The position numbers were made by a program, and so were the translations under genes. The notes beneath the pieces are model-generated. The model was not told where the DNA came from. It ran no database searches and was given only the letters and a program-made list of their open reading frames with translations. From Loktanella salsilacus (lineage in GTDB: Bacteria; Pseudomonadota; Alphaproteobacteria; Rhodobacterales; Rhodobacteraceae), in NCBI RefSeq assembly GCF_900114485.1, contig NZ_FOTF01000007.1:1-64000 (forward strand): DNA of 64,000 bases. Reading direction: 5' to 3'. This document shows positions 1 through 56,527 of the stretch, piece by piece. Position 1 is the first letter of the stretch; the number at the start of each line of letters is the position of its first letter.

Positions 1-117
1 GAGGCTTGGATCCTCATCGCACACATCAGACGCGTCACACGGCATCTCGCAAGGGATTGAGAAGGTGCAGTTAGTTTTGAATCAGACTCTCAGACGCCGG
101 GCAACGAGCTTATCCTG

Positions 118-1527
118 ATGCCAACGCTTATGGTTGCGATCGGTCTACTCGTCTCGATTGCCGCAGCTTGGCGGTCCCTGCGCGGCGGTCCGGCCTACCA
201 ATTCGCCGCCGCCTTCGCAGCGCTCTTTGCTCCGGTTCTGGCAGTCATCATCGAGGTCCAGTGGCAGCCGGCGCATTCCATAGGAGCATATCCTTGGGCC
301 CTGCACGCTATGGTTATCGGCGCGGCTATGGTGCTGATTGCTTATCGGTTTGCACGGCAGGACGGCCCTGAAGACAGAAGTCGGGTTTCCCTTGCTGTTC
401 TTTCCGCATTGGCCTGTATCGCGTTTGGTATGGTGGTGATCCTGACATCTGCCGCACTAACGATCGCCTTGGCGGTTACGGTCGTCGCTGCAGCTTGGCT
501 TGATCGGCAGTATAGCCTGCCGCTGATGGGCACCTATATCCTCGCCGGCGTTGCAACCATCGGCTACCGGCTCGTCGCCGATCCCGGACTAGGTTGGGCA
601 TTGGATGCGCCCATCATGGAAGTGCTGCCGACCTATCTTATCGCATTCACCGCTTTTGCCGTGTCGTGGGTTTTCATGACATTCATCAACCGTCCGCGGT
701 CAGAGGTCATTTTGGAAAGCGCGTCCATCTCATCGTTTGGGCTGCTGCTATCCGTGGCACTGTATCGCTTTTTGCTGCATTGGACCGGCTTACCCAGCGC
801 CGGTGAAAGCCACTGGGCGGCAGGTATTGATACAGCGATCTGGATTGTGCTTGGCTTGGCTCAATTGCGCCGCTTGCAGCTTGGCGGGCCGCTGCGGTCG
901 GTGAGGATCGGCATGGCGGTGATCTTTTTCACTATCGCCTTCATCCGGTTCGCCGTCGCGCTGGTATTCTCAAACCCTATATCTGTTTACATAGATGATC
1001 AGGTCATTGGACCGGTCCTGTTGAACACATTGATGCCCGCTTACTTGCTTCCCGCCCTGGCTTTTCTGCTGGGTGCGATATGGCTTAGGGATCTGCAAAG
1101 CGTCCTCAGGAAGGCTCTGATGATACTCGCGGGCGCCGTGGCGACCTTCTGGCTGACAATGACGATTAGGCACGGCTGGCGCGGGGCGGAGGATATGGCT
1201 TCTGTCAGCGCAAGTCAGGGCGAGCTTTACACCTATACCGTGGCAATCATGATTGTCGGGGCGGCCGCATTCTATCAGTCCCTTGCCCGAAGGAGCGTAA
1301 AGCTACGCAGAGCTGGCTTGATCATCATCGGACTTGCTGTCGCCAAGGTCTTCTTCATCGACATCGGTGAACTGGATGGACTGACACGTGTGTTCGCGCT
1401 GCTTTTCCTAGGCCTGACATTAGCCGCGCTCGCATGGCTGAACCGCTGGGCAAACGGCCACGATCCGCAGTTGAAGCATCAGCCCGATGATAAGGAGCCT
1501 GCTGATACCTCTGACCGGAGCCCCTAA
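118..1527 (+). CDS. DUF2339-type polytopic membrane protein, N-terminally short
   Basis: The 469-residue product is almost entirely hydrophobic helices, about a dozen, and ends with the pattern that closes DUF2339 proteins (a KVFFIDIGELDGLTR-like stretch followed by a last helix). Members of that family are usually about twice this long, so the N-terminal half is missing. An in-frame TGA lies at 58-60; the frame is open on both sides of it, and no convincing ribosome site precedes the ATG at 118. It is therefore either a truncated gene or the 3' piece of a disrupted one. The last codons run into a sequence that looks like an insertion-sequence end. Function is unknown; the family is annotated only as membrane proteins. 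Family assignment is from recalled pattern and is fairly, not fully, certain. Confidence 0.6.
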   Translation: MPTLMVAIGLLVSIAAAWRSLRGGPAYQFAAAFAALFAPVLAVIIEVQWQPAHSIGAYPWALHAMVIGAAMVLIAYRFARQDGPEDRSRVSLAVLSALACIAFGMVVILTSAALTIALAVTVVAAAWLDRQYSLPLMGTYILAGVATIGYRLVADPGLGWALDAPIMEVLPTYLIAFTAFAVSWVFMTFINRPRSEVILESASISSFGLLLSVALYRFLLHWTGLPSAGESHWAAGIDTAIWIVLGLAQLRRLQLGGPLRSVRIGMAVIFFTIAFIRFAVALVFSNPISVYIDDQVIGPVLLNTLMPAYLLPALAFLLGAIWLRDLQSVLRKALMILAGAVATFWLTMTIRHGWRGAEDMASVSASQGELYTYTVAIMIVGAAAFYQSLARRSVKLRRAGLIIIGLAVAKVFFIDIGELDGLTRVFALLFLGLTLAALAWLNRWANGHDPQLKHQPDDKEPADTSDRSP

Positions 1528-1676
1528 AACGCCTCCGATCTTGTGTAGAGTCCGTCCAACAAGGGGACGGACAATTGAAGGCACGATTTTACGGACGAAC
1601 AGATCAACGCGGTGATCAAGGAACAGGACGCTTTAGCGAAGTCCGCCGATCTATGCCGACAGCAACTTATCAAAAC
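1512..1676 (+). mobile_element. IS3-family remnant (terminal repeat and start of orfA)
   Basis: From 1512 the sequence TGACCGGAGCCCCTAAAA resembles the CCCC/AAA-rich ends of IS3-family elements. From 1591 the frame reads TDEQINAVIKEQ and continues through a DLCR motif, which matches the helix-turn-helix start of IS3 OrfA proteins. The expected beginning (MKARFT) is present only after removing one T from the run at 1587-1590 and another at 1575, so the frame is broken. Homology stops at the 3' end of the tRNA gene at 1677, with no orfB and no second terminus. It is a dead fragment about 165 bases long. Confidence 0.55.
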
Positions 1677-1753
1677 TGGCGATCCCGGAAGGAATCGAAC
1701 CCTCAACCTGCCGATTAGAAGTCGGCTGCTCTATCCAGTTGAGCTACGGGACC
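1677..1753 (-). tRNA. tRNA-Arg (anticodon UCU)
   Basis: Read on the minus strand the gene starts GGTCCCG and its acceptor arm pairs with CGGGATC (one G-U), followed by discriminator G and an encoded CCA at 1677-1679. The D arm is GCTC...GAGC, the anticodon stem GCCGA/TCGGC encloses the loop CTTCTAA with anticodon TCT, and the T arm carries TTCGATT between GAGGG and CCTTC. It therefore reads AGA. The 3' end directly abuts the insertion-sequence remnant. Confidence 0.95.
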
Positions 1754-1921
1754 GCACAGGCGTGTTTTGCGGGGTTGGCGGGCACTTGGCAAGCGGGTTG
1801 CGCGTTAAAGCGCGGCAAAACCGGAATTTCCCGGCCAGATCGCAGCATTCTTAGGGCAGGCCCCGTGACACTTGATCGCGGGACACGGTATGAGGGCGCA
1901 ACAATTATGAAAGGTGCCCCC

Positions 1922-2767
1922 ATGCGTCATATCTTGCTTGGTCTGCTTGTCCTGTCCGCGCAGCCGCTTGCGGCGCAGACGCTATACTTTTCGGCGATTC
2001 CTGACGATGACGAATCCCGTCTGGTCGAACGCTTTGGCGCGGTGGCGGGTTATCTGTCGGACGCGCTGGACGTTGACGTGCAGTATGTGCCGGTCAAAAG
2101 CTACGCCGCGGCCGTCACCGCCTTTGCGAATGATCAAATCCAGCTCGGCTGGTTCGGCGGGTTGTCCGGCGTGCAGGCGCGTATTGCAGTGCCGGAATCC
2201 CACGCGATTGCGCAAGGCGCAGAGGACGAGGCCTTCGTCACCTATTTCATCGCCAATAAGGACACCGGCCTGACGCTGGACCCCGCGTTCCCCGATCTGG
2301 CAGGACGCAGCTTTACCTTCGGCGCTGAAACCTCGACCTCTGGCCGGTTGATGCCGGAATTTTACATCCGTGCAGAGTCGGGCCAAGCGCCAGAAGAGCT
2401 CTTCTCCAACGTCGGATTCTCTGGCGATCACGGGCAGACGCTGCGTCTGGTGGCATCGGGCGCTTACGAGATCGGCGCGCTGAACTATTCCGTCTATGAC
2501 ACTGCGGTCGCTGATATGACGCCAGAGGCTGCGGCGACCACGATCATCTGGGAAACGCCGCCTTATCCCGACTATAACTGGACGATCCGCGGCGATGTCG
2601 ATGCCACCTTTGGCGCGGGCTTTGCGGACAAGGTGCAGGCTGCTTTGATCGGTATGGACGATCCAGTGCTGCTCGAATCCTTTCCGCGCAGCGCCTTTAT
2701 CGCAGCCGATGATGCGCTGTATCAGCCCATCGTTGATACGGCGCGTGCGCTGGATCTGATCGACTGA
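1922..2767 (+). CDS. Periplasmic substrate-binding protein, PhnD-like (putative selenate/phosphonate type)
   Basis: The 281-residue product has a signal peptide (MRHILLGLLVLSAQPLAAQ) and a PhnD-type fold: the YVPVKSYAAAVTAF and LGWFGGLSGVQAR stretches and the STSGRLMPEFYIR loop are hallmarks of the subgroup annotated as putative selenate ABC transporter binding proteins. It would capture an oxyanion in the periplasm and hand it to the permease. The ATG at 1922 is preferred because AAAGG lies about 8 bases upstream; an in-frame ATG at 1907 would add five residues. Its stop overlaps the start of the ATPase gene. Substrate is inferred from family memory only; phosphonate or phosphite are alternatives. 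Confidence 0.8.
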   Translation: MRHILLGLLVLSAQPLAAQTLYFSAIPDDDESRLVERFGAVAGYLSDALDVDVQYVPVKSYAAAVTAFANDQIQLGWFGGLSGVQARIAVPESHAIAQGAEDEAFVTYFIANKDTGLTLDPAFPDLAGRSFTFGAETSTSGRLMPEFYIRAESGQAPEELFSNVGFSGDHGQTLRLVASGAYEIGALNYSVYDTAVADMTPEAAATTIIWETPPYPDYNWTIRGDVDATFGAGFADKVQAALIGMDDPVLLESFPRSAFIAADDALYQPIVDTARALDLID

Positions 2768-3426
2768 TGCCACAGCCGCTGGTCACGCTGACGGGCGAAA
2801 GCCTTGGGTGGGGTGGCCAGCTGGCTCTGCACGATGTGTCCTTGCAGATTGCGCCGGGCGAGCGGATTGCCATTCTGGGGCGCAGCGGCGCGGGCAAAAG
2901 CACGCTGCTGACTGCGCTGCACGACCGGGCGCAGGTGCGGCTGGCGCTGGTGCCGCAGGACCACGGGCTGATCGGGGCGCTGTCGGTATTTCACAACGTC
3001 TGGATGGGCGTGCTGGATGATCACGGCACCGCCCGCAACCTGCGCACGCTGATTTGGCCGAATGCTGATGAACGCGGACGGGTTGCGCAGGTCCTTGGCG
3101 TTGTCGGCCTTGATGATCTGGGGCGACGGCCCGTGTCGCAACTGTCCGGCGGGCAGCGACAGCGGGTCGCGCTGGCCCGCGCCTTGCTGCGCGGCGGGGC
3201 GCTGGTGCTGGGGGACGAACCTGTGACGGCGCTGGACCCCGAACAAGGCGCGGCCTTGCTCGATCATCTGCTGGGGGCCTTTCCGACCAGCGTGCTGGTG
3301 CTGCATGACGTGGACCAAGCCTTGCGGGTCGCGACGCGGATTATCGGTCTGCGGCAGGGCCGGGTTGCCGTGGATGCGCCTGCTTCTGATCTAAGCGCAG
3401 ACGATCTGCTACAGCTTTACCGATGA
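2767..3426 (+). CDS. ABC transporter ATP-binding protein, PhnC-like
   Basis: This 219-residue ATPase powers the importer encoded on either side. Walker A (GRSGAGKS, residues 38-45), the Q-loop region (LVPQDHGLIG), the signature LSGGQRQR starting at residue 126, Walker B with D150-E151, and the H-loop histidine at residue 180 are all intact. It is compact, with no regulatory extension. The ATG shares its A with the stop of the binding-protein gene, and its own stop overlaps the permease start by four bases, so the three genes form one translationally coupled operon. Confidence 0.9.
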   Translation: MPQPLVTLTGESLGWGGQLALHDVSLQIAPGERIAILGRSGAGKSTLLTALHDRAQVRLALVPQDHGLIGALSVFHNVWMGVLDDHGTARNLRTLIWPNADERGRVAQVLGVVGLDDLGRRPVSQLSGGQRQRVALARALLRGGALVLGDEPVTALDPEQGAALLDHLLGAFPTSVLVLHDVDQALRVATRIIGLRQGRVAVDAPASDLSADDLLQLYR

Positions 3427-4898
3427 TCTTGCAGCGGCGTCATGTGCTGGCGGGCTTTGCCGCGCTCACCCTTATGGCCCTTTGGTTCGCCGACCTTGGC
3501 GCGATGCGTCCTGACCCTTGGATGACGCTTCGCGCGATTGGGCAGGGTATCCTGCATCCTGATTTTTCCGATATCGCGGGTCTGCTGCGGGCGACCGGGC
3601 TGACGGTTGCCTTTGCCTTTTGCGGCGTTGGTCTGGGGGCTGTGCTGGGCCTGCTGCTGGCCCCATTTTATGGCCGCGCCGCCGTGCGCCTGACCTGCAT
3701 CGCGGTGCGATCCGTGCACGAGCTGTTCTGGGCCCTTCTGCTGCTGGGCCTGACGGGGCTGTCGCCCCTGACCGGCGTGCTGGCCATCGGGCTGCCCTAT
3801 GCGGGCATCTTCGCCAAAGTCTTCTCTGAATATCTAGAGGACGCCGCCGCCAGCGCGCCTCTGAGCCGCCGCTTGCCGCGCCTGACGGCGCTACTGTGGG
3901 TCCGGTTGCCGCAGGCGTTGCCGCAGATGCGGACCTATACGCTGTATCGCCTGGAATGCGGTCTGCGCTCGTCCGCTGTGCTGGGGTTTATCGGGTTGCC
4001 GACCTTGGGCTTTCAGTTGGAAACCGCGTTCAAGCAGGCGCAGTACGGCCAAGCCGCCGCGGTGCTGGCGCTGTTCCTCGCGCTGATCTTGCCGCTGCGC
4101 TTTTGGGTGATCTGGCGGCTGGTGCCGCTGATGCTCGCGGCCTCTGCCACGGCGCTGATCTGGTTGCCGACGCCGCCGATGGGGCAGGGCGCGCTGATGC
4201 GTTTCTTAACAGGCATTGTGCCAAGCCCGCTGCGCACTGGGGCCGATTGGGGCGGCTGGCTTGATAAGGTGCTTCTGCAACAAGCGCTGCCCGGTAGCAT
4301 CGACACGCTGATCTTGTCGCAAATCGCGCTGGCGGCGGCGGCGCTGATCGCGGCTGTGGCCTTTCCGGCGATCGTGCCCAGCGTCGTGGGCCGGGCGGGT
4401 GCCGTGATCGGCCATGGCGTGCTGGTCGTGCTACGATCAATTCCGGATTACATGCTGGCCTTTGTGCTGCTGCAAGTGCTGGGCCCGTCGATGCTGCCCG
4501 CCATTCTGGCGCTTGGCCTGCACAACGGCGCGATCATTGCCCACCTGCTGGGCCGTCAAGCGGCGAGCCTGCCGCAGCGCACCGGCGCGCCGCGCGGCGT
4601 GACGCTGTGGGCGTGGGATCTGTTCCCCCGCCTGTCCCCCGCCTTTTGGGCGCTGTGTCTGTATAGGTGGGAGATTATTTTGCGCGACAGTGCCATCATG
4701 GGCCTGCTTGGGATCGGCACGCTGGGCTTTTATATTCAAAGCAACGTGCAGACCCTGCGCATGGACCGGGTCGTTGCGCTACTCGTCGTGTCGGCCTTGC
4801 TGACGCTGCTGATCGACACCCTTTCACGCCGCCTGCGCCGCGCCATGCGCGACGGCCCGCCCCTGCGGATCGAGGCGTCCCGCTGCCTCGCGACATAG
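3423..4898 (+). CDS. ABC transporter permease, two fused PhnE-like domains
   Basis: The 491-residue inner-membrane protein contains two copies of the binding-protein-dependent permease fold. Each half ends in the cytoplasmic coupling pattern: LRSSAVLGFIGLPTLGF in the first and LRDSAIMGLLGIGTLGF in the second. Most phosphonate importers use two PhnE chains or a homodimer; here one chain supplies both. Roughly ten to twelve membrane helices are visible. It is the last gene of the three-gene importer operon, followed after 64 bases by a copper ATPase that is probably separate. Confidence 0.88.
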   Translation: MILQRRHVLAGFAALTLMALWFADLGAMRPDPWMTLRAIGQGILHPDFSDIAGLLRATGLTVAFAFCGVGLGAVLGLLLAPFYGRAAVRLTCIAVRSVHELFWALLLLGLTGLSPLTGVLAIGLPYAGIFAKVFSEYLEDAAASAPLSRRLPRLTALLWVRLPQALPQMRTYTLYRLECGLRSSAVLGFIGLPTLGFQLETAFKQAQYGQAAAVLALFLALILPLRFWVIWRLVPLMLAASATALIWLPTPPMGQGALMRFLTGIVPSPLRTGADWGGWLDKVLLQQALPGSIDTLILSQIALAAAALIAAVAFPAIVPSVVGRAGAVIGHGVLVVLRSIPDYMLAFVLLQVLGPSMLPAILALGLHNGAIIAHLLGRQAASLPQRTGAPRGVTLWAWDLFPRLSPAFWALCLYRWEIILRDSAIMGLLGIGTLGFYIQSNVQTLRMDRVVALLVVSALLTLLIDTLSRRLRRAMRDGPPLRIEASRCLAT

Positions 4899-4962
4899 GC
4901 GTCCCTTGACGTCCGCGCCTTGCGGGCTTTCATAGAGTGTATTCCAAACCAGAGCCTGCATC

Positions 4963-7401
4963 ATGGCCACCACCACCACCGATCTGACATTTGATGTCAC
5001 CGGCATGTCCTGCGCCGCCTGCGCTGGCCGGGCAGAGCGTGCCTTGGCCGCCGTGCCCGGCGCACAGGACGCGCGCGTTAACTTTGCGACGGGACAGGCG
5101 CGGCTGTCGCTGGACGGGGCATCGCTGACGGACGTCACGCAGGCACTGACGCGCGCGGGCTATCCCGCCGCCACCACCGTGATGCAGATCGAAGTGGACG
5201 GCATGACCTGCGCGTCCTGCGCTGGCGCGGTCGAACGCACCTTGGCCAAGGCCCCCGGCGTGTTGGACGCGCAGGTCAATCTGGCCACCCGCCGCGCCAC
5301 CGTGACGGCGCTGGTTGGGGCGGTCACTGCGCAGGACTTGGCGCAGCGTGTCACCGACAATACCAGCTATACCGCCAGCGCCGAACCTTCCGCCCCGCAA
5401 GAGGATCGCACAGCGGCAGAGCAACACGCCTTGGGCCGCGACACGGCGATTGCCGCCGCACTGACCCTGCCGGTTTTCATCATGGAAATGGGCGGCCACG
5501 TGATCCCCGGCATGGCCGCGGCCATCGACGGCAGCATTGGGCGCACCGCGTCGTGGCTCATCCAGTTCGTGCTGGTGACCCTTGTGCTGATCGGTCCGGG
5601 CCGCCGGTTCTTTGTCCACGGCATCCCGTCCTTGCTGCGCGGCGCGCCAGAGATGAACGCCCTTGTCGCCCTTGGCGCAGCCGCCGCGTGGACCTATTCC
5701 ACCGTCGCCCTCTTCGCGCCCGGCCTGCTGCCCGCAGGCACGCAGGCCGTTTATTTCGAGGCAGCCGCCGTCATCGTCACCCTGATCCTGCTGGGCCGCT
5801 GGCTAGAGGCGCGGGCGCGGGGCCGGGCAGGCGCTGCGATCCGGTCGCTGGCCGGGCTGCGGCCGCAGTCGGCGCAGGTGGAACGTGACGGGGTCGCGAC
5901 CGAAATCGCCACGGATGCGATCGTCGTCGGCGACATTGTGATCGTCCGGCCCGGAGAGCGTTTGCCCGTCGACGGCACCGTCTTGACCGGCTCCGGCTGG
6001 GTCGATGAAAGCATGATCACCGGAGAGCCCGCGCCCGTGGAAAAGAAGCCCGGTCGCAGCGTGACAGGCGGTACCGTGAACGGCGAATCCGCCTTGCGGG
6101 TGCGGGCGCAGGCTGTGGGCGCGCAGACGGTTTTGGCCGGGATCGTGCGGCTGGTGCAGGACGCGCAGGGTGCAAAGCTGCCCATTCAGGCACTGGCCGA
6201 CCGCGTCGTGCGCTGGTTCGTACCGGCTGTTCTGGTGGTCGCAGCCTTGACCGTGGCGGCTTGGCTGGTGTTTGGCCCCACGCCCGCATTGACCTATGCG
6301 CTGGTCGCTGGTGTGTCGGTCCTGATCATTGCCTGCCCCTGCGCCATGGGGCTGGCCACGCCGGTCAGCGTCATGGTCGGCACGGGCCGGGCTGCGGATC
6401 TGGGCGTGCTCTTTCGCCGGGGCGATGCCTTGCAGCGCCTGTCGGATGCGACCGTGATTGCCTTTGATAAGACCGGAACGCTGACCCTTGGCGCGTCGGA
6501 TTTGACCGCCTTGACTGTGGCCCCCGGACAGGACGAAGGCCGCGTGCTTGCGCAGATCGCAGCGGTAGAGGGCGCGTCAGAGCATCCCTTGGCCCGCGCC
6601 ATCGTGAAGGCCGCAAAGGCGCGGGGGCTTACCGTTCCCGCCGCGACGCAGGTCACGGCCCTGACTGGCATGGGCGTGCGCGGCGTGGTGGACGGCGCGG
6701 TTGTGTTCGTCGGCGCGCCGCGTCTGATGGTGCAAGAGGGGATCGATATCAGCGCTTTGCGTCAGGCAGCAGATCAGATCGCGGCCTCGGCGCAGACGCC
6801 CGTTTTCGCCGTGATCGACGGTATGGCGGTTGCAGTGCTAGGCCTGTCCGATCCGGTCAAACCGAACGCCGCCAAAACCATCGCCGCCCTAAAAGCGCGG
6901 GGCTTGCGCACGGCCTTGATCACAGGCGACGCGCAAAGCGTGGCGGATGCGGTCGGGGCCAGCCTTGGGATTGATACCGTCGTGGCAGAGGTACGGCCCG
7001 AGGGCAAAGTCGCAGCGTTGGACGATCTGCGCCGCGCAGGGGACACGCTGGTCTTTGTGGGCGATGGCATCAACGACGCGCCCGCCTTGGCCGCCGCTGA
7101 CGTTGGCATCGCAGTGGGCACGGGCACGGATGTGGCGATTGAAACGGCGGACGTGGTGCTGATGTCGGGCGATTTGGCTGGCGTGGGGACCGCGCTGAAC
7201 TTGTCGCGCGCAACCCTGCGGAATATCCGGCAGAACCTGTTCTGGGCCTTTGCCTATAACGTCGCGCTGATCCCGGTTGCGGCAGGCGCGCTGTATCCGT
7301 TCACAGGCATGATGCTGTCGCCAATGCTGGCCGCCGGCGCGATGGCGGCGTCCAGCGTGCTTGTGGTGTCCAACGCGCTGCGCCTGCGCCGCGCTGGCTA
7401 A
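4963..7401 (+). CDS. copA: Cu(+)-exporting P1B-type ATPase
   Basis: This 812-residue pump exports cuprous ions from the cytoplasm at the expense of ATP. Two N-terminal heavy-metal domains carry C17-x-x-C20 and C83-x-x-C86. The core has the actuator TGE at 353-355, the membrane metal site CPC at 458-460, the phosphorylated D502 in DKTGTLT, the H541-P542 pair and GDGIND from residue 700. This is the classic P1B-1 arrangement. The CPC is followed by AMG, which is common in the family. No CueR-type regulator is adjacent. The stop codon takes part in a palindrome with the stop of the convergent rpe gene. Confidence 0.95.
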
Positions 7402-27382: not shown

Positions 27383-27420
27383 CCCTGCGGGGTTGTCTGC
27401 TTAACGAAGCGGATGACCTG

Positions 27421-27464
27421 CCACAACGGCTTCCTGACGTGGCGGGGTAATTTTAAATGGAGCA
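27421..27464 (+). promoter_or_regulatory. SAM/SAH riboswitch before metK
   Basis: CCACAACGGCTTCCTGACGT and the following GGCGGGGTAATTT...AATGGAGCA match the short SAM/SAH aptamer known from Rhodobacterales metK leaders. CCAC (27421-27424) pairs with GTGG (27439-27442), and the CTTCC of the loop can form a pseudoknot with GGAG at 27459-27462, which is also the ribosome site of metK. Ligand binding would hide that site. Confidence 0.85.
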
Positions 27465-43583: not shown

Positions 43584-44696
43584 CTATTGGTTCATCGCGT
43601 AGAAATACCCGACTGTTAGCGCAAACACCAGCCCGAGGAGGACCGCAAACGCGATCTTCCACTTGGAATAGGGCCGCTCACCCTGCACGCGCCCGGTGCG
43701 GCCGTTGACGACAAAGCGGTAGGTCTGGCCGTTGTATTTATAGGCCGCCATCCAGACCGGCAGCAGGATATGTTTGAAAGTCACCGCTGATACCTGCGTC
43801 TGCACGTTCGTCACCCGCTGCTCGTCCCCGCCGATGTCGAACTTCACATCGCGTAGGATCATCCGGTCCATATAACCGCGCGCTTGGGTAAAGCCGTCTT
43901 GCAGTGCGACCTGATAACCTTCGGCCATAAAACCAGCGAGGTATTGCGGCTGGTAAGGCTCAAGCTCCGACAGATCCCACGGCTCTAGCCCGTCGGTGTA
44001 TTGCTTGGGCAAACTGGTGGAGGCCAGCACCAACACATCGTCAAAAAAGCGCTGCACGCGGCCAGCGGCGCTGCGCCAGCGGGTGTGCTGTTCGCGGATG
44101 GTGCGGGTTTTACCGTCCCGCGTCACGGTGCGGGTGGTGTAATAATGGGTGCCGCGCTGGCCGGTGTAACTGCTGGCCGTCTGCGCATCAAAGGTCCAGT
44201 AGGGCACATAGATGCCGTCCATCGCACGGCCCTTGCGGGCGTATTCGGTCAGACCGCCGGGGGCGAACCACAGGCTGCCCAGCCAGTCGGTCATCGCATC
44301 GCGGGCGCGGGCTTGGTCCAGCGCAAAGGGCAGCAGGCCGCGTGGTTTGATCTGGCGATGCGGGCCGGTGTCGGTGACGACGGGCGTTGCGCAAAAGGGG
44401 CATTCGGCGGCATGTGTGTCGCCTGCCAACTCGAACTGCGCACCGCAGTTGGGGCAGGACTGGACGCGTGTGTCCTCCATCTCGGCCCCCGGCAGTGCGT
44501 TGTCCAAGGCTTTGCGGAAATCCAGTTCGACCATGCCGCCAAAAGGGCCAGCGCCGCCGCCGATGGCTTCGGTATTGCCGCAGTGATCACAAACCAATTG
44601 CGCGCTGGCGGGATCAAAACGCAGGTCGGACCCGCAGGTGTGACACGGAAAGCGGTGGTCGTTTTGGGGGGCGACTAGGGGGGCTTCGGCGGTCAT
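43584..44696 (-). CDS. Double zinc-ribbon membrane-anchored protein (YdjG-like)
   Basis: The 370-residue product has two zinc ribbons at the N-terminus, CHTCG/CDHCG and CPNCG/CPFCA, a long middle domain rich in Tyr and Trp (GIYVPYWTFDAQTASSYTGQ) and one C-terminal membrane helix. It resembles proteins sometimes mislabelled as primosomal N' and, in layout, Bacillus YdjG, which works with an SPFH partner in envelope stress. ATG at 44696 follows GAGGG. It closes the cluster of XpaC-like, TelA-like and SPFH genes on the same strand. Confidence 0.75.
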   Translation of the reverse strand: MTAEAPLVAPQNDHRFPCHTCGSDLRFDPASAQLVCDHCGNTEAIGGGAGPFGGMVELDFRKALDNALPGAEMEDTRVQSCPNCGAQFELAGDTHAAECPFCATPVVTDTGPHRQIKPRGLLPFALDQARARDAMTDWLGSLWFAPGGLTEYARKGRAMDGIYVPYWTFDAQTASSYTGQRGTHYYTTRTVTRDGKTRTIREQHTRWRSAAGRVQRFFDDVLVLASTSLPKQYTDGLEPWDLSELEPYQPQYLAGFMAEGYQVALQDGFTQARGYMDRMILRDVKFDIGGDEQRVTNVQTQVSAVTFKHILLPVWMAAYKYNGQTYRFVVNGRTGRVQGERPYSKWKIAFAVLLGLVFALTVGYFYAMNQ

Positions 44697-44765
44697 CGGA
44701 CCCTCGGGCAGGTTTGCGGAACTGCCCAAGGGATAGCGCGGTGCGCGGCGGGGCGCCAGCGCGGC

Positions 44766-45257
44766 TTAATCTGCGGTGCCGCGCGTCATGCGGCGCAGGG
44801 TCGCGTCTTTTAGGAAATAGTGGTGATAAAGCGCGATTAGCGCATGGCCCAAGGCCACGATCATCAACGCATTTGCCACCAGAGCATGCGGATCACCGAC
44901 GGCACGGATTTTCAGATACCACGTCACGGCACCCATCGCCGGGGCCAGAAACATCAGCAGATACAGCAGACGGTGGCCCCAAGTCCCGGCTTTTTCCATC
45001 AGCGGTGGTTGGCCCGCAATCGGGGCTGGGGCACCTTGCATCCAGCGCACGATCATTCGGATCACGACCAGCAGTAGCACCGCTGTGCCCAGCCAGACAT
45101 GCCATGTATTGCCGTCAAACCCGCTTAGGTTTTCCTGCATCCGGGTCCGCAGGGCGCGGCCCATGCCATCGCCCAGCCACCAGGTTGCAAGGATCAGCAC
45201 CGCAATCAGCCAATGCAGGCCGATTTGAAGTTTGGAATAGCGGGTTTTGTCGGCCAT
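44766..45257 (-). CDS. Cytochrome b561-type membrane protein
   Basis: The 163-residue protein has four membrane helices with the histidines expected to hold two b haems: LQIGLHWLIAVLI, TWHVWLG, TWGHRLLYLLM and GHALIALYHHYF. It would pass electrons, perhaps from quinol to a periplasmic acceptor such as superoxide. ATG at 45257 follows AAGGGA; an ATG at 45290 would add 11 residues. It lies between the SPFH and zinc-ribbon genes on the same strand, but whether it belongs to their function is not known. Confidence 0.88.
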   Translation of the reverse strand: MADKTRYSKLQIGLHWLIAVLILATWWLGDGMGRALRTRMQENLSGFDGNTWHVWLGTAVLLLVVIRMIVRWMQGAPAPIAGQPPLMEKAGTWGHRLLYLLMFLAPAMGAVTWYLKIRAVGDPHALVANALMIVALGHALIALYHHYFLKDATLRRMTRGTAD

Positions 45258-45335
45258 CGGTCTGGTCCCTTGCGTTGTGCCATCAGACATCTAACGCAAG
45301 GTAAACACAGTTCCGTCGCGGGCCGTTACAAGTTT

Positions 45336-46448
45336 TTACCCTGCTGGCGGCGGCGGCGGCATGACGGTGAAAAGCTGTGCAAGTTCCGTATCCACGGCAG
45401 CCTTCCAGCCGTCCTGACCTTGGGTCCAGACCATCGTATCGCGGCCAAGCGCGCCTTCGGTCACCTTGCGGCCCATTGCGGCCTTAGAAAACGGACCCGT
45501 CGTCTGGCCTGCAATGGCGATATGCCAAACATGCTCCACCGGAGGGGGGGGCGGCGGCGGGGCCGCAGCGGCGACGCTTGGCTGCGGCATCTGACCCCAA
45601 GGGCCGGATTGCACCATATTGCCCATCTGCATGCCCAGACCTGCGCCCATGCCCATGCCCATCGCCTGGCCTGCTGCGCTACCCGGCTGGGTCATCGCCT
45701 CTGCGGCTTTCCACTTCATATGCTCGTCCAGATTGCCCGCGATACCGCGGCTGGTGCGGGCGTCCAGCGCCTTTTCCACAGCCTCTGGCAGGCTGATGTT
45801 TTCGATATAAAGCTCTGGGATCGTAATGCCGTAGGCGGTCATGGTGGCGTCAATCGCCTTGGCGACCAGATCGCCCATGTCCTTGGTATTCGCCGCCATA
45901 TCCAGTGCGGGAATGCCGGACGCGGCCAGTGCGCGGCTGAATTCCTGCACGATGACATTGCGGATCTGATAGCTGATCTCATCCGCCGTAAACTCGCCAT
46001 CCGTGCCGACGATTTCGCGCATAAAGACAGCCGGATCGCTGACCTTGATCGCATAGGTGCCATAGGCGCGCAGGCGGATCGGGCCGAATTCGGGATCGCG
46101 CAGCATGATCGGATTCTTGGTGCCCCACTTCAGATCGGTAAAGCGGGTCGTATTGATGAAATAGATTTCCGATTTGAACGGGCTTTGAAAGCCGTGATCC
46201 CAATGCTGTAGGGACGTCATGATCGGCATGTTGTTGGTTTCCAGCATATACATGCCGGGGGTAAAGACATCGGCCAGCTGACCTTCGTGAACGAAAACAG
46301 CAGCCTGACCTTCGCGAACCGTCAGTTTGGCACCATACTTAATCTCGTGGCCGTGACGTTCAAACCGCCAGACCATCGTGTCGCGGGTGTCGTCGGTCCA
46401 CTGAATAACGTCGATGAACTGGCCAGAAAGGAAGTCGAGAATACCCAT
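45336..46448 (-). CDS. SPFH-domain protein with C-terminal GYF_2 domain (YdjI-like)
   Basis: The 370-residue product has an SPFH region in roughly the first 250 residues (the so-called virion-core-like family: VIQWTDDTRDTMVWRFER, GAKLTVREGQAAVFVHEGQ), then a Gly/Met-rich linker (AMGMGMGAGLGMQMG), a run of prolines and a C-terminal GYF_2 domain (VWHIAIAGQTTGPFSKAAMG). SPFH proteins scaffold membrane microdomains; GYF domains bind proline-rich partners. Its own proline run could be self-recognition. It starts 27 bases downstream of the DUF2927 lipoprotein gene. Confidence 0.85.
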   Translation of the reverse strand: MGILDFLSGQFIDVIQWTDDTRDTMVWRFERHGHEIKYGAKLTVREGQAAVFVHEGQLADVFTPGMYMLETNNMPIMTSLQHWDHGFQSPFKSEIYFINTTRFTDLKWGTKNPIMLRDPEFGPIRLRAYGTYAIKVSDPAVFMREIVGTDGEFTADEISYQIRNVIVQEFSRALAASGIPALDMAANTKDMGDLVAKAIDATMTAYGITIPELYIENISLPEAVEKALDARTSRGIAGNLDEHMKWKAAEAMTQPGSAAGQAMGMGMGAGLGMQMGNMVQSGPWGQMPQPSVAAAAPPPPPPPVEHVWHIAIAGQTTGPFSKAAMGRKVTEGALGRDTMVWTQGQDGWKAAVDTELAQLFTVMPPPPPAG

Positions 46449-46475
46449 GTCAGGCTCCTATGTAAGTCGGTCTAA

Positions 46476-47462
46476 TCAGCTGGCCTTGTCCGTGCCCAGC
46501 AGTTCCTTAGCGATGACCCGCGCAATCGGTGCCGCCTCTGCTGCGGACATGCCGGTTTTAAAGCGCTTGTCGTAAAGCATCTTAAGCAGCAGTTCGTCAT
46601 GGCGGGTCAGCAGGCCGAATTCTTCGTCGTCGTTAAAGATCGAAGGCCGCGCCTGCGGGCTGTCGTTAGCAAGTCCAAGGCCCTGCGACAGTTCTTCGTG
46701 GATGCAAGATGTCGTCAACAGGGTCGGGTGTTCGGCGCGGATCACGGCGACGGCCTTGGCATAACTCGCAGAGCCGCCTTCGGAAAAGGCGATGACGATG
46801 CACAGCTGATCGCGGGGCAGGTTCATGATCGCCCGCAGGCTGCTGCCGCCGATACCGGGCACCAGTTCGCGTAGGCGCGTCTCATACCCGGCGCGGTCAT
46901 CTTCGGACAAGAACAGCACGTGATAGTTGGCGTTATTATCGGTCATGCTGATCGGTACGCCTGATACCCGCGACAGCCGCGCGGCATAGGCCGCAACGCT
47001 GGCACGGTCCTTGCTGCGTCGATCCGCCGTGACCGAGGGGCCGAATTCCACCGACATGCGGATCGGCTGATCCCACCGCCGCAGGCGCGATTCCGTGGCC
47101 TGTGCGCGCAGGAAATCACCGTCCGTGACGTATTCGTCAAATAGGGCAATGCGGACAAAGTTTCGTGCCAGCATTGTGTCTGTGAACGGGGTGTCCGAGC
47201 CGCCGCCGTCGCTGCGCAGCAACCCTTGGGTAATCAGATCGTTCTGCAGGCGTTGGTAATATACCTTGAGCGCCGCGCTTTCGGCGCTGACGGGCGGCAC
47301 CGTTTCCGGTGCGGGCGCTGGCTGCGGCGTGCGCACAATGGGGCGGGCGACCTGCTGAGGGATCACCGGCGTGACCGCGACATCCGCCGGGGTCGTGCAG
47401 GCGGACAGCGCAGCAAGCCCCGCTGCCATCATCCCAACACGCAATGCCGCCCGCTTTGTCAT
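46476..47462 (-). CDS. DUF2927 lipoprotein, zincin-like
   Basis: The 328-residue product has a lipoprotein signal (lipobox LSAC), a Pro-rich spacer, then a DUF2927 domain. The motif IHEELSQGLGLANDSPQA looks like a metzincin-type zinc site (HE...LGL.ND), followed by LTRHDELLLKMLYD, also conserved in this family. A periplasmic peptidase is plausible but not shown; the third metal ligand is not certain. It begins three bases downstream of the telA-like gene and is translated with it. Confidence 0.75.
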   Translation of the reverse strand: MTKRAALRVGMMAAGLAALSACTTPADVAVTPVIPQQVARPIVRTPQPAPAPETVPPVSAESAALKVYYQRLQNDLITQGLLRSDGGGSDTPFTDTMLARNFVRIALFDEYVTDGDFLRAQATESRLRRWDQPIRMSVEFGPSVTADRRSKDRASVAAYAARLSRVSGVPISMTDNNANYHVLFLSEDDRAGYETRLRELVPGIGGSSLRAIMNLPRDQLCIVIAFSEGGSASYAKAVAVIRAEHPTLLTTSCIHEELSQGLGLANDSPQARPSIFNDDEEFGLLTRHDELLLKMLYDKRFKTGMSAAEAAPIARVIAKELLGTDKAS

Positions 47463-47465
47463 GTT

Positions 47466-48635
47466 TTAAGCGCCTTTTGCCGGAGTATTGCGCGATTTGG
47501 CCGAGGCCAGCGTGGTTTTCAAATCCTGCTCCATCTTTTGCAGGTCTGCCTCTGCCGCGGCGCGCTTGCGCTTGCCTTCGTCGGCGATGGACAGGCTTTC
47601 GTCGATCGTCGCGATCAGATCGGCGTTCGCGGCCTTCACGGCATCGATATCAAACACGCCGCGTTCGATTTCCGTGCGGATCGCGGTATTCGCATCGCGC
47701 AGGTTCTTGGCGTTGGCCTTCAGCAGGTCATTGGTCAGATCATTCGCCTCGCGCACCGCGCCCGCCGCTTGGGCCGACCGCTGGATCGTCACCGCCTGCG
47801 CCAGTTGCGTTTCCCACAAAGGCACCGTGTTCAGCAGGGTCGAGTTGATCTTGGTCACAAGGCTCTTGTCGTTTTCCTGCACCAACCGGATCGACGGCAG
47901 CGATTGCATCGTCACCTGACGGGTCAGTTTCAGATCATGCACCCGGCGTTCCAGATCGTCCCGCGCAGAGCGCAGATCGCGCAGTTGCTGCGCTTCCATG
48001 ACGCTGCCCGCTTCTGGCACAGCGGCGACAGCTGCCTCTTTCGCGGGGATTTCTTCGGCGTCGATGCGGGCCAGACGCGCTTCGCCAGCGACGATATACA
48101 GGCCAAGCTCGTCATAGAACGCCAGCGTCTTGGTATACAGCCGGTCGAGGGATTCGATATCCTTCATCAGCATGGTTTCATGGCCCAGCAGATCGTCGGT
48201 GATCTTGTCGATCTGGGTTTGCACGTCCTCATACTTGGCGACGAATTTCGACAACGGCGTCGCACGGCCCAGCAGCTTGTCGAACCAGCTTTGCTTGCGG
48301 TTCGGGTCCAGTTCGGCCACGGAAAAGCCGCGGATTGTGCTGACGATGCTGCGCAGGCTTTCACCCGCCGGGCCCACGTCCTTATTGCGCACGCCCGATA
48401 GCATATCTTGGGAAATCTGCTGCAATCCGGCCTGCGCGGCAGTGCCAAAGGTCACGATAGAGTTCGTGTCCGTCAGATCAATCTCGTTCATGCGTCGGGT
48501 GATCGCCTCTGATGTGGATTTGTCGGCGGTATCCAGCGTGACCATTTCCGCAGGCGGTTCGGGCAGCACGACGGCCGTCATTTTCTCCACATCGGCAAGG
48601 GTTGCCTGTGCGCGGTCGCGAGTCGTGTCAGCCAT
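47466..48635 (-). CDS. TelA/toxic-anion-resistance family protein
   Basis: The 389-residue cytoplasmic protein is largely alpha-helical coiled coil, with the TelA-type segments GVRNKDVGPAGESLRSIV, KYEDVQTQIDKITDDLLGHE, FYDELGLYIVAGE and QNDKSLVTKINSTLLNTVPL. The family was named for tellurite resistance but is tied more generally to envelope stress and partners with XpaC. It starts three bases downstream of the xpaC-like gene. No tellurite-reducing or Ter-domain genes are in the window. Confidence 0.9.
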   Translation of the reverse strand: MADTTRDRAQATLADVEKMTAVVLPEPPAEMVTLDTADKSTSEAITRRMNEIDLTDTNSIVTFGTAAQAGLQQISQDMLSGVRNKDVGPAGESLRSIVSTIRGFSVAELDPNRKQSWFDKLLGRATPLSKFVAKYEDVQTQIDKITDDLLGHETMLMKDIESLDRLYTKTLAFYDELGLYIVAGEARLARIDAEEIPAKEAAVAAVPEAGSVMEAQQLRDLRSARDDLERRVHDLKLTRQVTMQSLPSIRLVQENDKSLVTKINSTLLNTVPLWETQLAQAVTIQRSAQAAGAVREANDLTNDLLKANAKNLRDANTAIRTEIERGVFDIDAVKAANADLIATIDESLSIADEGKRKRAAAEADLQKMEQDLKTTLASAKSRNTPAKGA

Positions 48636-48638
48636 CTA

Positions 48639-49514
48639 TCAGTCCTGTCTGTCTGCGATGCCTTCGCGCGCCAGACGGTCGCGCAGCACCTTGATTTCGA
48701 TATCCATATCACTGCGGTCGTCATCTAACAAACGCGCGGTGCGGGCATTAAAGTTCCGGTCCAGATCATCCAGCAGCGCGACATAGGCCTCGCGGGCCTG
48801 GGGACTGGGTTTGCGCCGGGTCAGATCGACGAACTTGGTCGTCGCATCCGTGGCACCCTGCAAATAGACGCCCAGAAACTTGCGGGCCGAGGTCATATCG
48901 CGCGGGTCTTCTTCGACCGTGCGAATCATGGTGAGGGCGGTGGACTGAAAAGCGGCGACGCGGGTCTGCAGCGGACGGTCGCCCAGCGCCGTGATCTGCG
49001 CCATCATGGCGGACAAATGCGCTTCTGCCTCTTCGACGACGCGGGCGACGCGGTCTTGTTGAAAGCTGTCGACGCCAGCCAAGCGTTTGTTTTGCAACGG
49101 ATCAATGCCAAAGGCCGCCAGATGCGCGGCGGTGGCGACGATGCCATAGATGGCACTGCCAAGCAGCCCGTCGCTGCCCGTCGCCGTAGCAAGCGCGACG
49201 CCAAGACCTGTCAGCAGCGCGGCAAGGATCTTGCGCGGCAAGGCAGGGCGCCGCGCGACGCTGCGCGCTTGCCATGCCGCCGTCGCCCGTAAGCCGCCGC
49301 GCAGCAGCCAAGCGCCAAGGCCCAAGGCCGCAGCCCCCGCAATCCCTGTCGCCAGCCCGGCCGGATCGCTGCCAAGCGACGCAAAAAGCAAGATTGCCGG
49401 CGGCACCAGCATCAGGTTCGCCCGCGCGCCGACCGGATCAACCACTGGTCGCTGCTGCACATGACCAGCAGGCGTAGCGCCGGGGCTAAATTTACCGCCG
49501 TAAGATTTCGCCAT
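48639..49514 (-). CDS. XpaC-like membrane protein
   Basis: The 291-residue product matches the family annotated as 5-bromo-4-chloroindolyl phosphate hydrolysis protein (XpaC). Several hydrophobic helices occupy about residues 35-150, then comes a helical cytoplasmic domain with DRVARVVEEAEAHLSAMM and the MTSARKFLGVYLQGATDAT motif. xpaC and telA genes are commonly adjacent, as here. No phosphatase motif is present, so the family name should not be read as an activity. Its ATG touches the stop of the small membrane-protein gene. Confidence 0.85.
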   Translation of the reverse strand: MAKSYGGKFSPGATPAGHVQQRPVVDPVGARANLMLVPPAILLFASLGSDPAGLATGIAGAAALGLGAWLLRGGLRATAAWQARSVARRPALPRKILAALLTGLGVALATATGSDGLLGSAIYGIVATAAHLAAFGIDPLQNKRLAGVDSFQQDRVARVVEEAEAHLSAMMAQITALGDRPLQTRVAAFQSTALTMIRTVEEDPRDMTSARKFLGVYLQGATDATTKFVDLTRRKPSPQAREAYVALLDDLDRNFNARTARLLDDDRSDMDIEIKVLRDRLAREGIADRQD

Positions 49515-49717
49515 CAGTCAGCCCCCAGCAATCCGGTGCTGACCCCGGTGGTCAGTGCGAATAAAAAGATAAAAGCGATCATGCGCACCGGGCCGGGCAG
49601 GCCCTGCGGTGTGCTGGCGTCCTCTTGCGTGGATGCCGTCCGCAGCGCTGCAATCCCCGCCATCGCGACGATGGCAAGGCCGCAAAGCAGCGTCAGGAAC
49701 AGTATCAATCGGGCCAT
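49514..49717 (-). CDS. Small two-helix membrane protein heading the stress cluster
   Basis: The 67-residue product has two predicted membrane helices (residues 3-25 and about 45-62) joined by a short polar loop (RTASTQEDASTPQG). It overlaps the xpaC-like start by one base, so it is probably the first gene of that operon. No family is recognised. Confidence 0.6.
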   Translation of the reverse strand: MARLILFLTLLCGLAIVAMAGIAALRTASTQEDASTPQGLPGPVRMIAFIFLFALTTGVSTGLLGAD

Positions 49718-55959: not shown

Positions 55960-56376
55960 GTGCGGATGGCTGGACGGTCGCGGGCAGCAATGTCCGAGGA
56001 AAGTCCGGACTCCATGACGGCAACGGTGCCGGGTAACACCCGGCGGGGGCAACCCCAGGGAAAGCGCCACAGAGAAGAGACGGCCTTGGTCGCACCATGC
56101 GTGCGGCATTGCAGACACCAAGGTCACGGTGAAACGGTGGGGTAAGAGCCCACCGCGCGACTGGCAACAGAAGCGGCACGGCAAGCCCCACCGGGAGCAA
56201 TGCCAAATAGGGGCCTTGCGCCGGTGTGATCCAGCAATGGATATCCCGGTAGGGACGCCTGACCCAAAAGGCCCGGGTTGGCAGCTAGAGGGTCGTCGGT
56301 AACGGCGGCCTTAGATGAATGATCGTCCAACTGCCGCAAGGCGGGGGACAAAATCCGGCTTATAGGCCATCCGCAC
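55960..56376 (+). ncRNA. rnpB: RNase P RNA (class A)
   Basis: The P4 core GAGGAAAGTCCGGACTCC is near the 5' end and its partner ACAAAATCCGGCTTATAG near the 3' end. The termini GTGCGGATGGC (55960-55970) and GCCATCCGCAC (56366-56376) pair as helix P1, which sets the ends. The gene lies between the amidase and rpmG. Confidence 0.96.
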
Positions 56377-56527
56377 ACCTGCCGCCTGCGCCAATCGGCG
56401 CCTGTGCGCGTTACCTGCCCCAAAAAGCCCCTTTTGTGGTTGACTCGGGGCCAGCGCCAGTTAGAAGGCAATCCTCAAGAGATTTGATGCGCAGCACGCA
56501 TTCCGCGCCGCGAACAGGAGAAGACAC

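What the first reader, a model, noticed from the sequence alone, without database searches (positions are those of the whole stretch)
43584..49717. XpaC-TelA-DUF2927-SPFH/GYF-b561-zinc-ribbon membrane-stress cluster
Seven same-strand genes, mostly 0-30 bases apart at the front end, combine XpaC and TelA (a known pair) with an SPFH protein bearing a GYF domain and a double zinc-ribbon membrane protein. The last two resemble in layout the Bacillus YdjI/YdjG partners of PspA-type stress proteins. No PspA, TerB, TerD or tellurite gene is present. A zincin-like lipoprotein and a cytochrome b561 add periplasmic and redox parts. Together they look like an envelope-stress or antiphage machine whose combined function in Rhodobacterales is, to my knowledge, not described.
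Basis: partly seen in the sequence, partly recalled or inferred. Interest (0 to 1): 0.8.

Follow-up and report, generated by a model that had tools for sequence, protein, structure and literature searches.

The report
TelA–SPFH envelope cluster lacking PspA
A set of neighbouring genes found in most Rhodobacteraceae examined, and in simpler form in some other bacterial groups, joins a tellurite-resistance-type protein to a membrane-scaffold pair that in Bacillus holds the stress protein PspA at the membrane; it looks like a PspA-free membrane-maintenance system and may help to learn what the long-known but unexplained protein TelA does.

Summary
In the window's family SPFH is found in 56 of 61 genomes; of 55 loci, 47 have all five main genes, and those present keep order and strand in 55. 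Five genomes without SPFH also lack zinc-ribbon, TelA and XpaC. A four-gene core, xpaC-telA-SPFH/GYF-ZnR, recurs in other Alphaproteobacteria, Gammaproteobacteria and Campylobacterota. The SPFH/zinc-ribbon pair is homologous to a Firmicutes pair with the YdjI/YdjG/YdjH layout, but PspA is absent from this genome. GYF-bearing SPFH proteins almost always end in a PPP tail (142 of 146; 0 of 9 without GYF; 2 of 770 other proteins), so the tail may be the GYF ligand. Best reading: a PspA-independent membrane scaffold with TelA/XpaC as partners, serving envelope or oxyanion stress. The antiphage reading is unsupported; DUF2927 lacks the zincin motif. No function was tested. New variant of a known kind.

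The parts
49514..49717 (-). 67-aa protein with two TM-like segments; its stop overlaps the xpaC start by one base
   Evidence: TM-like segments, and a small ORF with a strong hydrophobic stretch just upstream of xpaC in 13 of 51 family loci; tblastn-detectable in 10 of 55 loci; no Pfam hit.
48639..49514 (-). XpaC-like (PF10112): three TM-like segments then a helical C-terminal domain
   Evidence: Pfam 3.3e-25; TM-like segments; model pLDDT 88.5, pTM 0.76.
47466..48635 (-). TelA (PF05816): predicted all-helical with long helices, no TM-like segment
   Evidence: Pfam 2.8e-107; model helices 127-205, 208-324, 330-383, pLDDT 73.7, pTM 0.55; dN/dS 0.04-0.12 against three same-genus loci.
46476..47462 (-). 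DUF2927 protein with a lipobox-like Cys22, Cys pair C221/C253 and an EExxQxxGxxND site
   Evidence: Pfam 1.8e-62; conservation; lipobox reading is mine, from the sequence.
45336..46448 (-). SPFH (Band_7_1) + GYF_2 with a C-terminal PPPPP tail; no TM-like segment
   Evidence: Pfam; alignment; GYF/tail association; hydropathy.
44766..45290 (-). Cytochrome b561, optional insert
   Evidence: Pfam 1.8e-21; tblastn-detectable in 7 of 55 family loci.
43584..44729 (-). Double zinc-ribbon protein with one C-terminal TM-like segment, YdjG-like in layout
   Evidence: Eight conserved Cys; TM-like 355-380; family profile matches a Firmicutes homologue at 4.1e-47.

Best explanation
The cluster encodes a conserved, PspA-independent membrane-maintenance complex. 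The zinc-ribbon protein (YdjG-like, one C-terminal TM-like segment) and the multi-pass XpaC sit in the inner membrane; the SPFH protein, which has no TM-like segment, is recruited to them and oligomerises; TelA, a soluble helical protein, is the cytosolic partner that the scaffold positions, in the place PspA takes in Bacillus. The GYF domain binds the PPP tail of a neighbouring SPFH subunit (or its own), locking or linking the scaffold. In Rhodobacterales a DUF2927 lipoprotein adds an envelope part and b561 an optional redox part. The complex protects the membrane under envelope or oxyanion stress. Shown by sequence: composition, order, distribution, co-loss, homology to a Firmicutes SPFH/ZnR pair, GYF/tail association, absence of PspA. 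Inferred: physical complex, TelA's role, GYF-tail binding, stress function.
For: Present genes keep order and strand in 55 of 55 family loci, all five genes in 47. The five family genomes lacking SPFH also lack ZnR, TelA and XpaC. TelA has one match over the cut-off in each of 34 of 37 family genomes, within 4 kb of SPFH in 32 of 34 by coordinates. Four-gene core in 5 genomes of four other alphaproteobacterial families and in 27 of 56 adequately long named loci. SPFH-linked TelAs fall in one 48-row clade (46 linked, 2 not), SH-aLRT 100. The ZnR profile matches the Enterococcus ZnR next to SPFH and TPM genes, 4.1e-47; YdjG/YdjH layout in PMC11237479 (passages). YdjI recruits PspA with YdjG/H (PMC8581546, passages). 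GYF/PPP tail 142 of 146 against 0 of 9 and 2 of 770. R. sphaeroides telA listed as a tellurite determinant (PMC6955997, passage).
Against: No expression, interaction or phenotype data. The TelA model is only moderate (pTM 0.55) and Foldseek gave no PDB match at E<=0.001; a three-sequence PspA profile, which does find a held-out PspA, did not match TelA, so TelA as PspA substitute rests on context alone. 17 of 56 eligible named loci have SPFH+ZnR without TelA/XpaC and 8 have none of these partners: the scaffold exists without TelA in some lineages. In 2 of 34 family genomes TelA lies away from SPFH. TelA/XpaC also occur in another cassette. Eleven of 61 family genomes carry PspA as well. The 9 GYF-less SPFH proteins are few and rows are related.
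Confidence: 0.5

Rival explanations
1. Oxyanion (tellurite) resistance locus: TelA/XpaC are the functional unit and the SPFH/ZnR pair is a chaperone for redox or transport proteins.
For: A review lists telA from R. sphaeroides as a chromosomal tellurite determinant (PMC6955997, passage). TelA is single-copy in 34 of 37 family genomes, so that telA is probably this gene (inference; R. sphaeroides was not identified here). A phage family of TelA relatives is also labelled tellurite resistance (PHROG 5890).
Against: [quoted passage not shown] TelA-less SPFH/ZnR loci exist.
Confidence: 0.2
2. Assembly or quality-control factor for membrane protein complexes (chaperone-like, as Ravi et al. propose for band-7/TPM partners of PspA), constitutive and not a stress system.
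For: In 56 of 61 family genomes; strong purifying selection on SPFH and TelA; chaperone-like proposal in PMC11237479 (passages).
Against: No client known; five family genomes do without it.
Confidence: 0.2
3. Antiphage defence system.
For: A Vibrio plasmid carries the SPFH-ZnR pair near a TIR-domain gene, which lies on the opposite strand.
Against: 0 of 6 proteins hit PADLOC; near-universal presence with recurrent flanks in the family.
Confidence: 0.04
4. Neighbours by history only: unrelated housekeeping genes kept together by vertical descent.
For: pfkB, dtd, rluB and tadA are also found beside the cluster in 33, 38, 43 and 39 of 55 family loci.
Against: The four-gene core recurs in other families and phyla and is lost as a block in five genomes.
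Confidence: 0.03

Closest known systems
Bacillus subtilis pspA-ydjGHI (PspA, YdjG, YdjH, YdjI)
   Same: SPFH protein without a TM anchor; partner with two zinc ribbons, a further domain and a TM segment (layout from passages of PMC8581546 and PMC11237479); sequence homology of both genes to an Enterococcus SPFH/ZnR pair that has a TPM gene next to it.
   Different: No PspA match in the genome and none in the loci by a small profile, no TPM protein in the cluster; TelA and XpaC instead; SPFH ends in GYF plus PPP tail, not in a zinc ribbon. B. subtilis YdjG itself was not compared.
XpaC-TelA pairs of Firmicutes (Listeria lmo1966-lmo1967; B. subtilis YaaN)
   Same: Adjacent XpaC- and TelA-like genes in Listeria (PMC12791056, passage).
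   Different: Here they are neighbours of SPFH/GYF and ZnR; the linked TelAs form a clade apart from 8 of 10 unlinked alphaproteobacterial TelAs (no Firmicutes TelA was in that tree).
DUF4178/SPFH/polyamine-synthase cassette
   Same: Related Band_7_1 SPFH protein (L056; Novosphingobium L221).
   Different: No GYF and no PPP tail in these two proteins; DUF4178 proteins and spermine synthase instead of ZnR, TelA and XpaC.
TelA/XpaC cassette with an SBP+vWA protein
   Same: Shares TelA and XpaC.
   Different: No SPFH in the stretches read; SBP+vWA between telA and xpaC confirmed by Pfam in 2 loci (L119, L121); L114 and L123 have a protein of similar size there that was not tested.

Membership tests
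YdjI/YdjG SPFH-zinc-ribbon module | Band_7_1 SPFH protein without TM anchor | tested here: met
   PF13421 3.2e-101; no TM-like segment.
YdjI/YdjG SPFH-zinc-ribbon module | Nearby partner gene with two zinc ribbons and a TM segment | tested here: met
   Eight Cys and TM-like tail; homologue next to SPFH and TPM genes in Enterococcus. In the window b561 lies between the two genes.
YdjI/YdjG SPFH-zinc-ribbon module | NTF2-like (YpeB-related) domain in the zinc-ribbon protein | not tested
   Described for YdjG in PMC11237479 (passage).
PspA (Psp) system proper | PspA/IM30 gene present | tested here: not met
   No PF04012 match in the window's genome; 9 of 14 control genomes ring.
PspA (Psp) system proper | YdjH-like TPM protein in the cluster | tested here: not met
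   No TPM hit among the seven cluster proteins.
TelA family | PF05816 over cut-off, near full length | tested here: met
   359.1 bits against cut-off 30, residues 49-377.
XpaC family | PF10112 over cut-off | tested here: met
   89.6 bits against 29.8.
Ter (TerD) stress system | TerD-domain gene in the genome | tested here: not met
   PF02342: no match in the own genome; 2 of 14 controls ring.
Zincin metalloprotease (DUF2927) | HExxH motif | tested here: not met
   No HExxH in 19 diverse rows or 52 family rows; aligned site EExxQxxGxxN in the window. Consensus recalled; fold not predicted; no convincing PDB sequence match.
Known antiphage systems (PADLOC-DB 2.0.0) | Any model match at E<=1 | tested here: not met
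   0 of 6 proteins; the 67-aa protein was not scanned.

The most novel reading that the evidence does not exclude
A widespread PspA-free relative of the Psp response in which TelA is the membrane-acting effector positioned by an SPFH oligomer, and in which each SPFH subunit carries both a GYF domain and its own PPPxP ligand, so that tail-to-GYF contacts in trans polymerise or lock the scaffold and are opened by a signal from the zinc-ribbon protein.
Probability: 0.22. Interest if true: 0.78.

Novelty: new variant of a known kind. Interest (0 to 1): 0.58.

Why it matters
TelA and XpaC carry names from tellurite resistance and indolyl-phosphate hydrolysis but, to my knowledge, no mechanism. Their conserved, co-lost linkage to an SPFH/zinc-ribbon scaffold gives a concrete partner set and a testable role in membrane maintenance, in a family where 50 of 61 genomes searched, this one included, have no PspA match over the cut-off. 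The GYF/PPP-tail coupling is a simple biochemical prediction for how a bacterial SPFH scaffold could link its subunits.

Tried and rejected
Antiphage reading: rejected on PADLOC and near-universal family distribution. Active zincin for DUF2927: rejected, no HExxH. TelA as an ESCRT-III/PspA fold: not shown; of 895 Foldseek matches the 50 listed are helical proteins such as alpha-pore-forming toxin components (AhlC, ClyA, XaxB), ciliary coiled coils and BAR domains, none at E<=0.001 and no PspA among the 50; the three-sequence PspA profile, with a positive control on a held-out PspA at 1.5e-72, does not match TelA. XpaC fold: no PDB match at E<=0.001. PDB sequence searches gave GYF, weak stomatin and zinc-ribbon matches or chance hits. 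Promoter scan found none, uninformative in this lineage. b561-like ORFs in SPFH-ZnR gaps: a loose grouping of 10 loci is not relied on, because it mixes possible wrong-frame ORFs and the one member tested with Pfam (L063) had no hit. Literature: TelA+XpaC+SPFH 0 papers; TelA+XpaC 19 papers, mostly human XPA papers by word start, of which only PMC12791056 was opened, as passages; DUF2927 0; 'toxic anion resistance'+SPFH 0; GltJ+GYF+MglB 0; SPFH+'GYF domain'+bacteria 1 paper, whose shown passages do not concern this cluster; seen as listings. PMC11237479 and PMC9239133 have no TelA in the text searched. Rows dropped: L056 (another family) from the 55-locus counts; 24 of 80 named loci with short flanks from the 56-locus counts; one dN/dS pair (L060 zinc ribbon) failed on a bad start and the L058 b561 pair used 43 codons only; the PspA profile used 3 of 4 loci. 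One search counted 79 of 80 loci, one search failed, one search is the corrected count.
Full report
Observation. The seven genes lie on the minus strand as described. In transcription order: a 67-aa protein with two TM-like segments; XpaC; TelA; a DUF2927 protein with a lipobox-like start; SPFH+GYF; cytochrome b561; and a double zinc-ribbon protein with a C-terminal TM-like segment. pfkB follows 13 bp further on and rluB precedes by 80 bp, same strand (coordinates). The zinc-ribbon gene may start at the ATG near 44696. No terminator-like site lies in a gap on this strand. dN/dS against three same-genus loci is 0.04-0.12 for SPFH and TelA and about 0.2 for XpaC.

Conservation in the family. SPFH is found in 56 of 61 genomes of the window's family (in one of the 56 only as a fragment at a contig edge). 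In 55 loci from 54 of these genomes, xpaC was found in 51, telA in 52, DUF2927 in 52, ZnR in 52, and all five in 47; those present kept order and strand in 55 of 55. Of the three ZnR misses, L051 and L054 end at a contig edge, while L066 has 2.6 kb of contig left downstream without it. Median gaps between consecutive main genes are 23, 3, 24 and 64 bp. b561 is optional: 7 of 55 by tblastn. The five family genomes without SPFH (G021, G036, G037, G040, G052; G040 only 74% complete) have no match to the zinc-ribbon, TelA or XpaC profiles. The zinc-ribbon search rang in a sixth genome, G029, within the call; the TelA and XpaC searches rang in none of the six, so they lack a control within the call, though the Pfam TelA search found 34 other family genomes and also missed G021 and G036. 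TelA has one match over the cut-off in each of 34 of 37 family genomes; in G012 and G025 it lies away from SPFH. In Paracoccus and Pseudorhodobacter the SPFH gene is found on very large plasmids (6 records); in one of them, P. ferrooxidans pFER4, annotation reads toxic anion resistance protein, DUF2927, SPFH, zinc ribbon.

Wider distribution. In 240 genomes drawn from the class, 77 have some Band_7_1 match at E<=0.001 but only 11 a strong one, below 1e-70. By, 8 of these 11 have xpaC and telA upstream (DUF2927 in between in the three of the family), and 10 have the zinc-ribbon gene downstream (after b561 in two); the exception G072 carries DUF4178-like zinc-ribbon ORFs and a spermine synthase (DUF4178 is read from the annotated Novosphingobium cassette). 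Outside the family (G117, G191, G124, G177, G282) the core is xpaC-telA-SPFH-ZnR without DUF2927 or b561. With own profiles, 43 of 80 have telA and 62 of 80 the zinc-ribbon gene; of 56 loci with enough flank, 27 have the four genes (7 of them with DUF2927 too), 17 have SPFH+ZnR only, 8 none of the partners, and 4 other parts of the set. By record titles the TelA-linked loci are Alpha- and Gammaproteobacteria, Pseudomonadota without class, Campylobacterota, and one titled only 'bacterium'; SPFH+ZnR without TelA is seen, among others, in Planctomycetes, Bacteroidota, Gemmatimonadota and Micromonospora. Seven loci, six of them deltaproteobacterial by title, share a different double zinc-ribbon neighbour; Pfam was run on one of these. 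In a TelA tree of 56 rows (quick method, some long branches), all 46 SPFH-linked TelAs and 2 unlinked ones (one on a 3-kb contig) form a clade with SH-aLRT 100; the other 8 unlinked alphaproteobacterial TelAs lie outside. Most linked rows were gathered through SPFH, so the tree does not measure how often such TelAs are unlinked in other phyla.

Relation to YdjI/YdjG. The family zinc-ribbon profile matches an Enterococcus protein (4.1e-47) that follows an SPFH gene and precedes a TPM gene. PMC11237479 (passages) describes YdjG as two zinc ribbons, an NTF2-like domain and a TM segment, YdjH as a TPM protein and the band-7 protein as ending in a zinc ribbon; PMC8581546 (abstract and passages) shows that YdjI needs YdjG and YdjH for membrane localisation and is needed for PspA foci. 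The module is therefore homologous, with GYF in place of the terminal zinc ribbon. PspA has no match in this genome and is over the cut-off in 11 of 61 family genomes.

GYF and tail. Of 155 SPFH ORFs collected here (154 distinct), 146 have a GYF domain by a profile made from the 13-row alignment, and 142 of these have PPP in the last 14 residues (134 with PPPxP there, 135 in the last 20); the other 4 end in PPSL, PPAL, PPKL or PLPLPKQ. None of 9 without GYF has it, and 2 of 770 other proteins of the named loci do. The rows are related and the collection was seeded with GYF-bearing proteins, so the Fisher p (6e-12) overstates independence. Still, the pair is kept across phyla, also in divergent plasmid copies of Tsukamurella and Bacteroides, and the tail is absent where the end is a zinc ribbon or another module. 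The closest solved GYF by sequence is in adventurous gliding motility protein X (7z3c, 1e-10). That GYF domains bind proline-rich peptides is established knowledge (recalled).

Other parts. TelA is predicted all-helical (pLDDT 73.7, pTM 0.55); no PDB fold match at E<=0.001. XpaC is predicted better (pLDDT 88.5), also without such a match. DUF2927 keeps a Cys pair and, in most rows, E-E-x-x-Q-x-x-G-x-x-N-D, and has no HExxH in 19 diverse or 52 family rows, so an active canonical zincin is unlikely.

Function. Evidence is only by kinship: telA of R. sphaeroides is listed as a chromosomal tellurite determinant (PMC6955997, passage; the 1997 paper itself was not held), and Listeria TelA contributes to nisin and cell-wall antibiotic resistance (title in the reference list of PMC12791056). 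Both fit a membrane-maintenance role but do not show it. I commit to a PspA-independent SPFH scaffold that positions TelA at the membrane with XpaC, at confidence 0.5.

Verdict. Observation confirmed; interpretation partly supported. A conserved combination not found described in the searches; a new variant of a known kind.

Noticed in passing
window 55962-56378 (+), 27415-27464 (+), 1677-1753 (-): RNase P RNA class A, a SAM/SAH riboswitch and tRNA-Arg(tct).
   Followed up: no
G000:C33:172647-173240: A second DUF2927 match elsewhere in the same genome, in a 454-aa frame.
   Followed up: no
G220:C1:46652-66787: Seven DUF2927 matches within about 20 kb in another alphaproteobacterial genome, an apparent array.
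   Followed up: no
L114, L119, L121, L123: Another TelA/XpaC arrangement with a 520-630 aa protein between telA and xpaC; SBP+vWA by Pfam in L119 and L121, the other two not tested.
   Followed up: partly
L213 (Vibrio coralliilyticus plasmid) 1-7136: SPFH/GYF + zinc-ribbon pair on a plasmid, next to oppositely oriented TIR-domain and TRAFs-binding genes.
   Followed up: no
L214, L215 (records named Enterococcus / Listeria phage): Records labelled phage whose ORFs look like bacterial chromosomal genes; probably host contigs (reading of the ORFs is mine).
   Followed up: partly
L196, L199 (Salipiger): Two xpaC-like genes in tandem upstream of telA.
   Followed up: no
L130, L143: Two tandem DUF2927 genes between telA and SPFH.
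   Followed up: no
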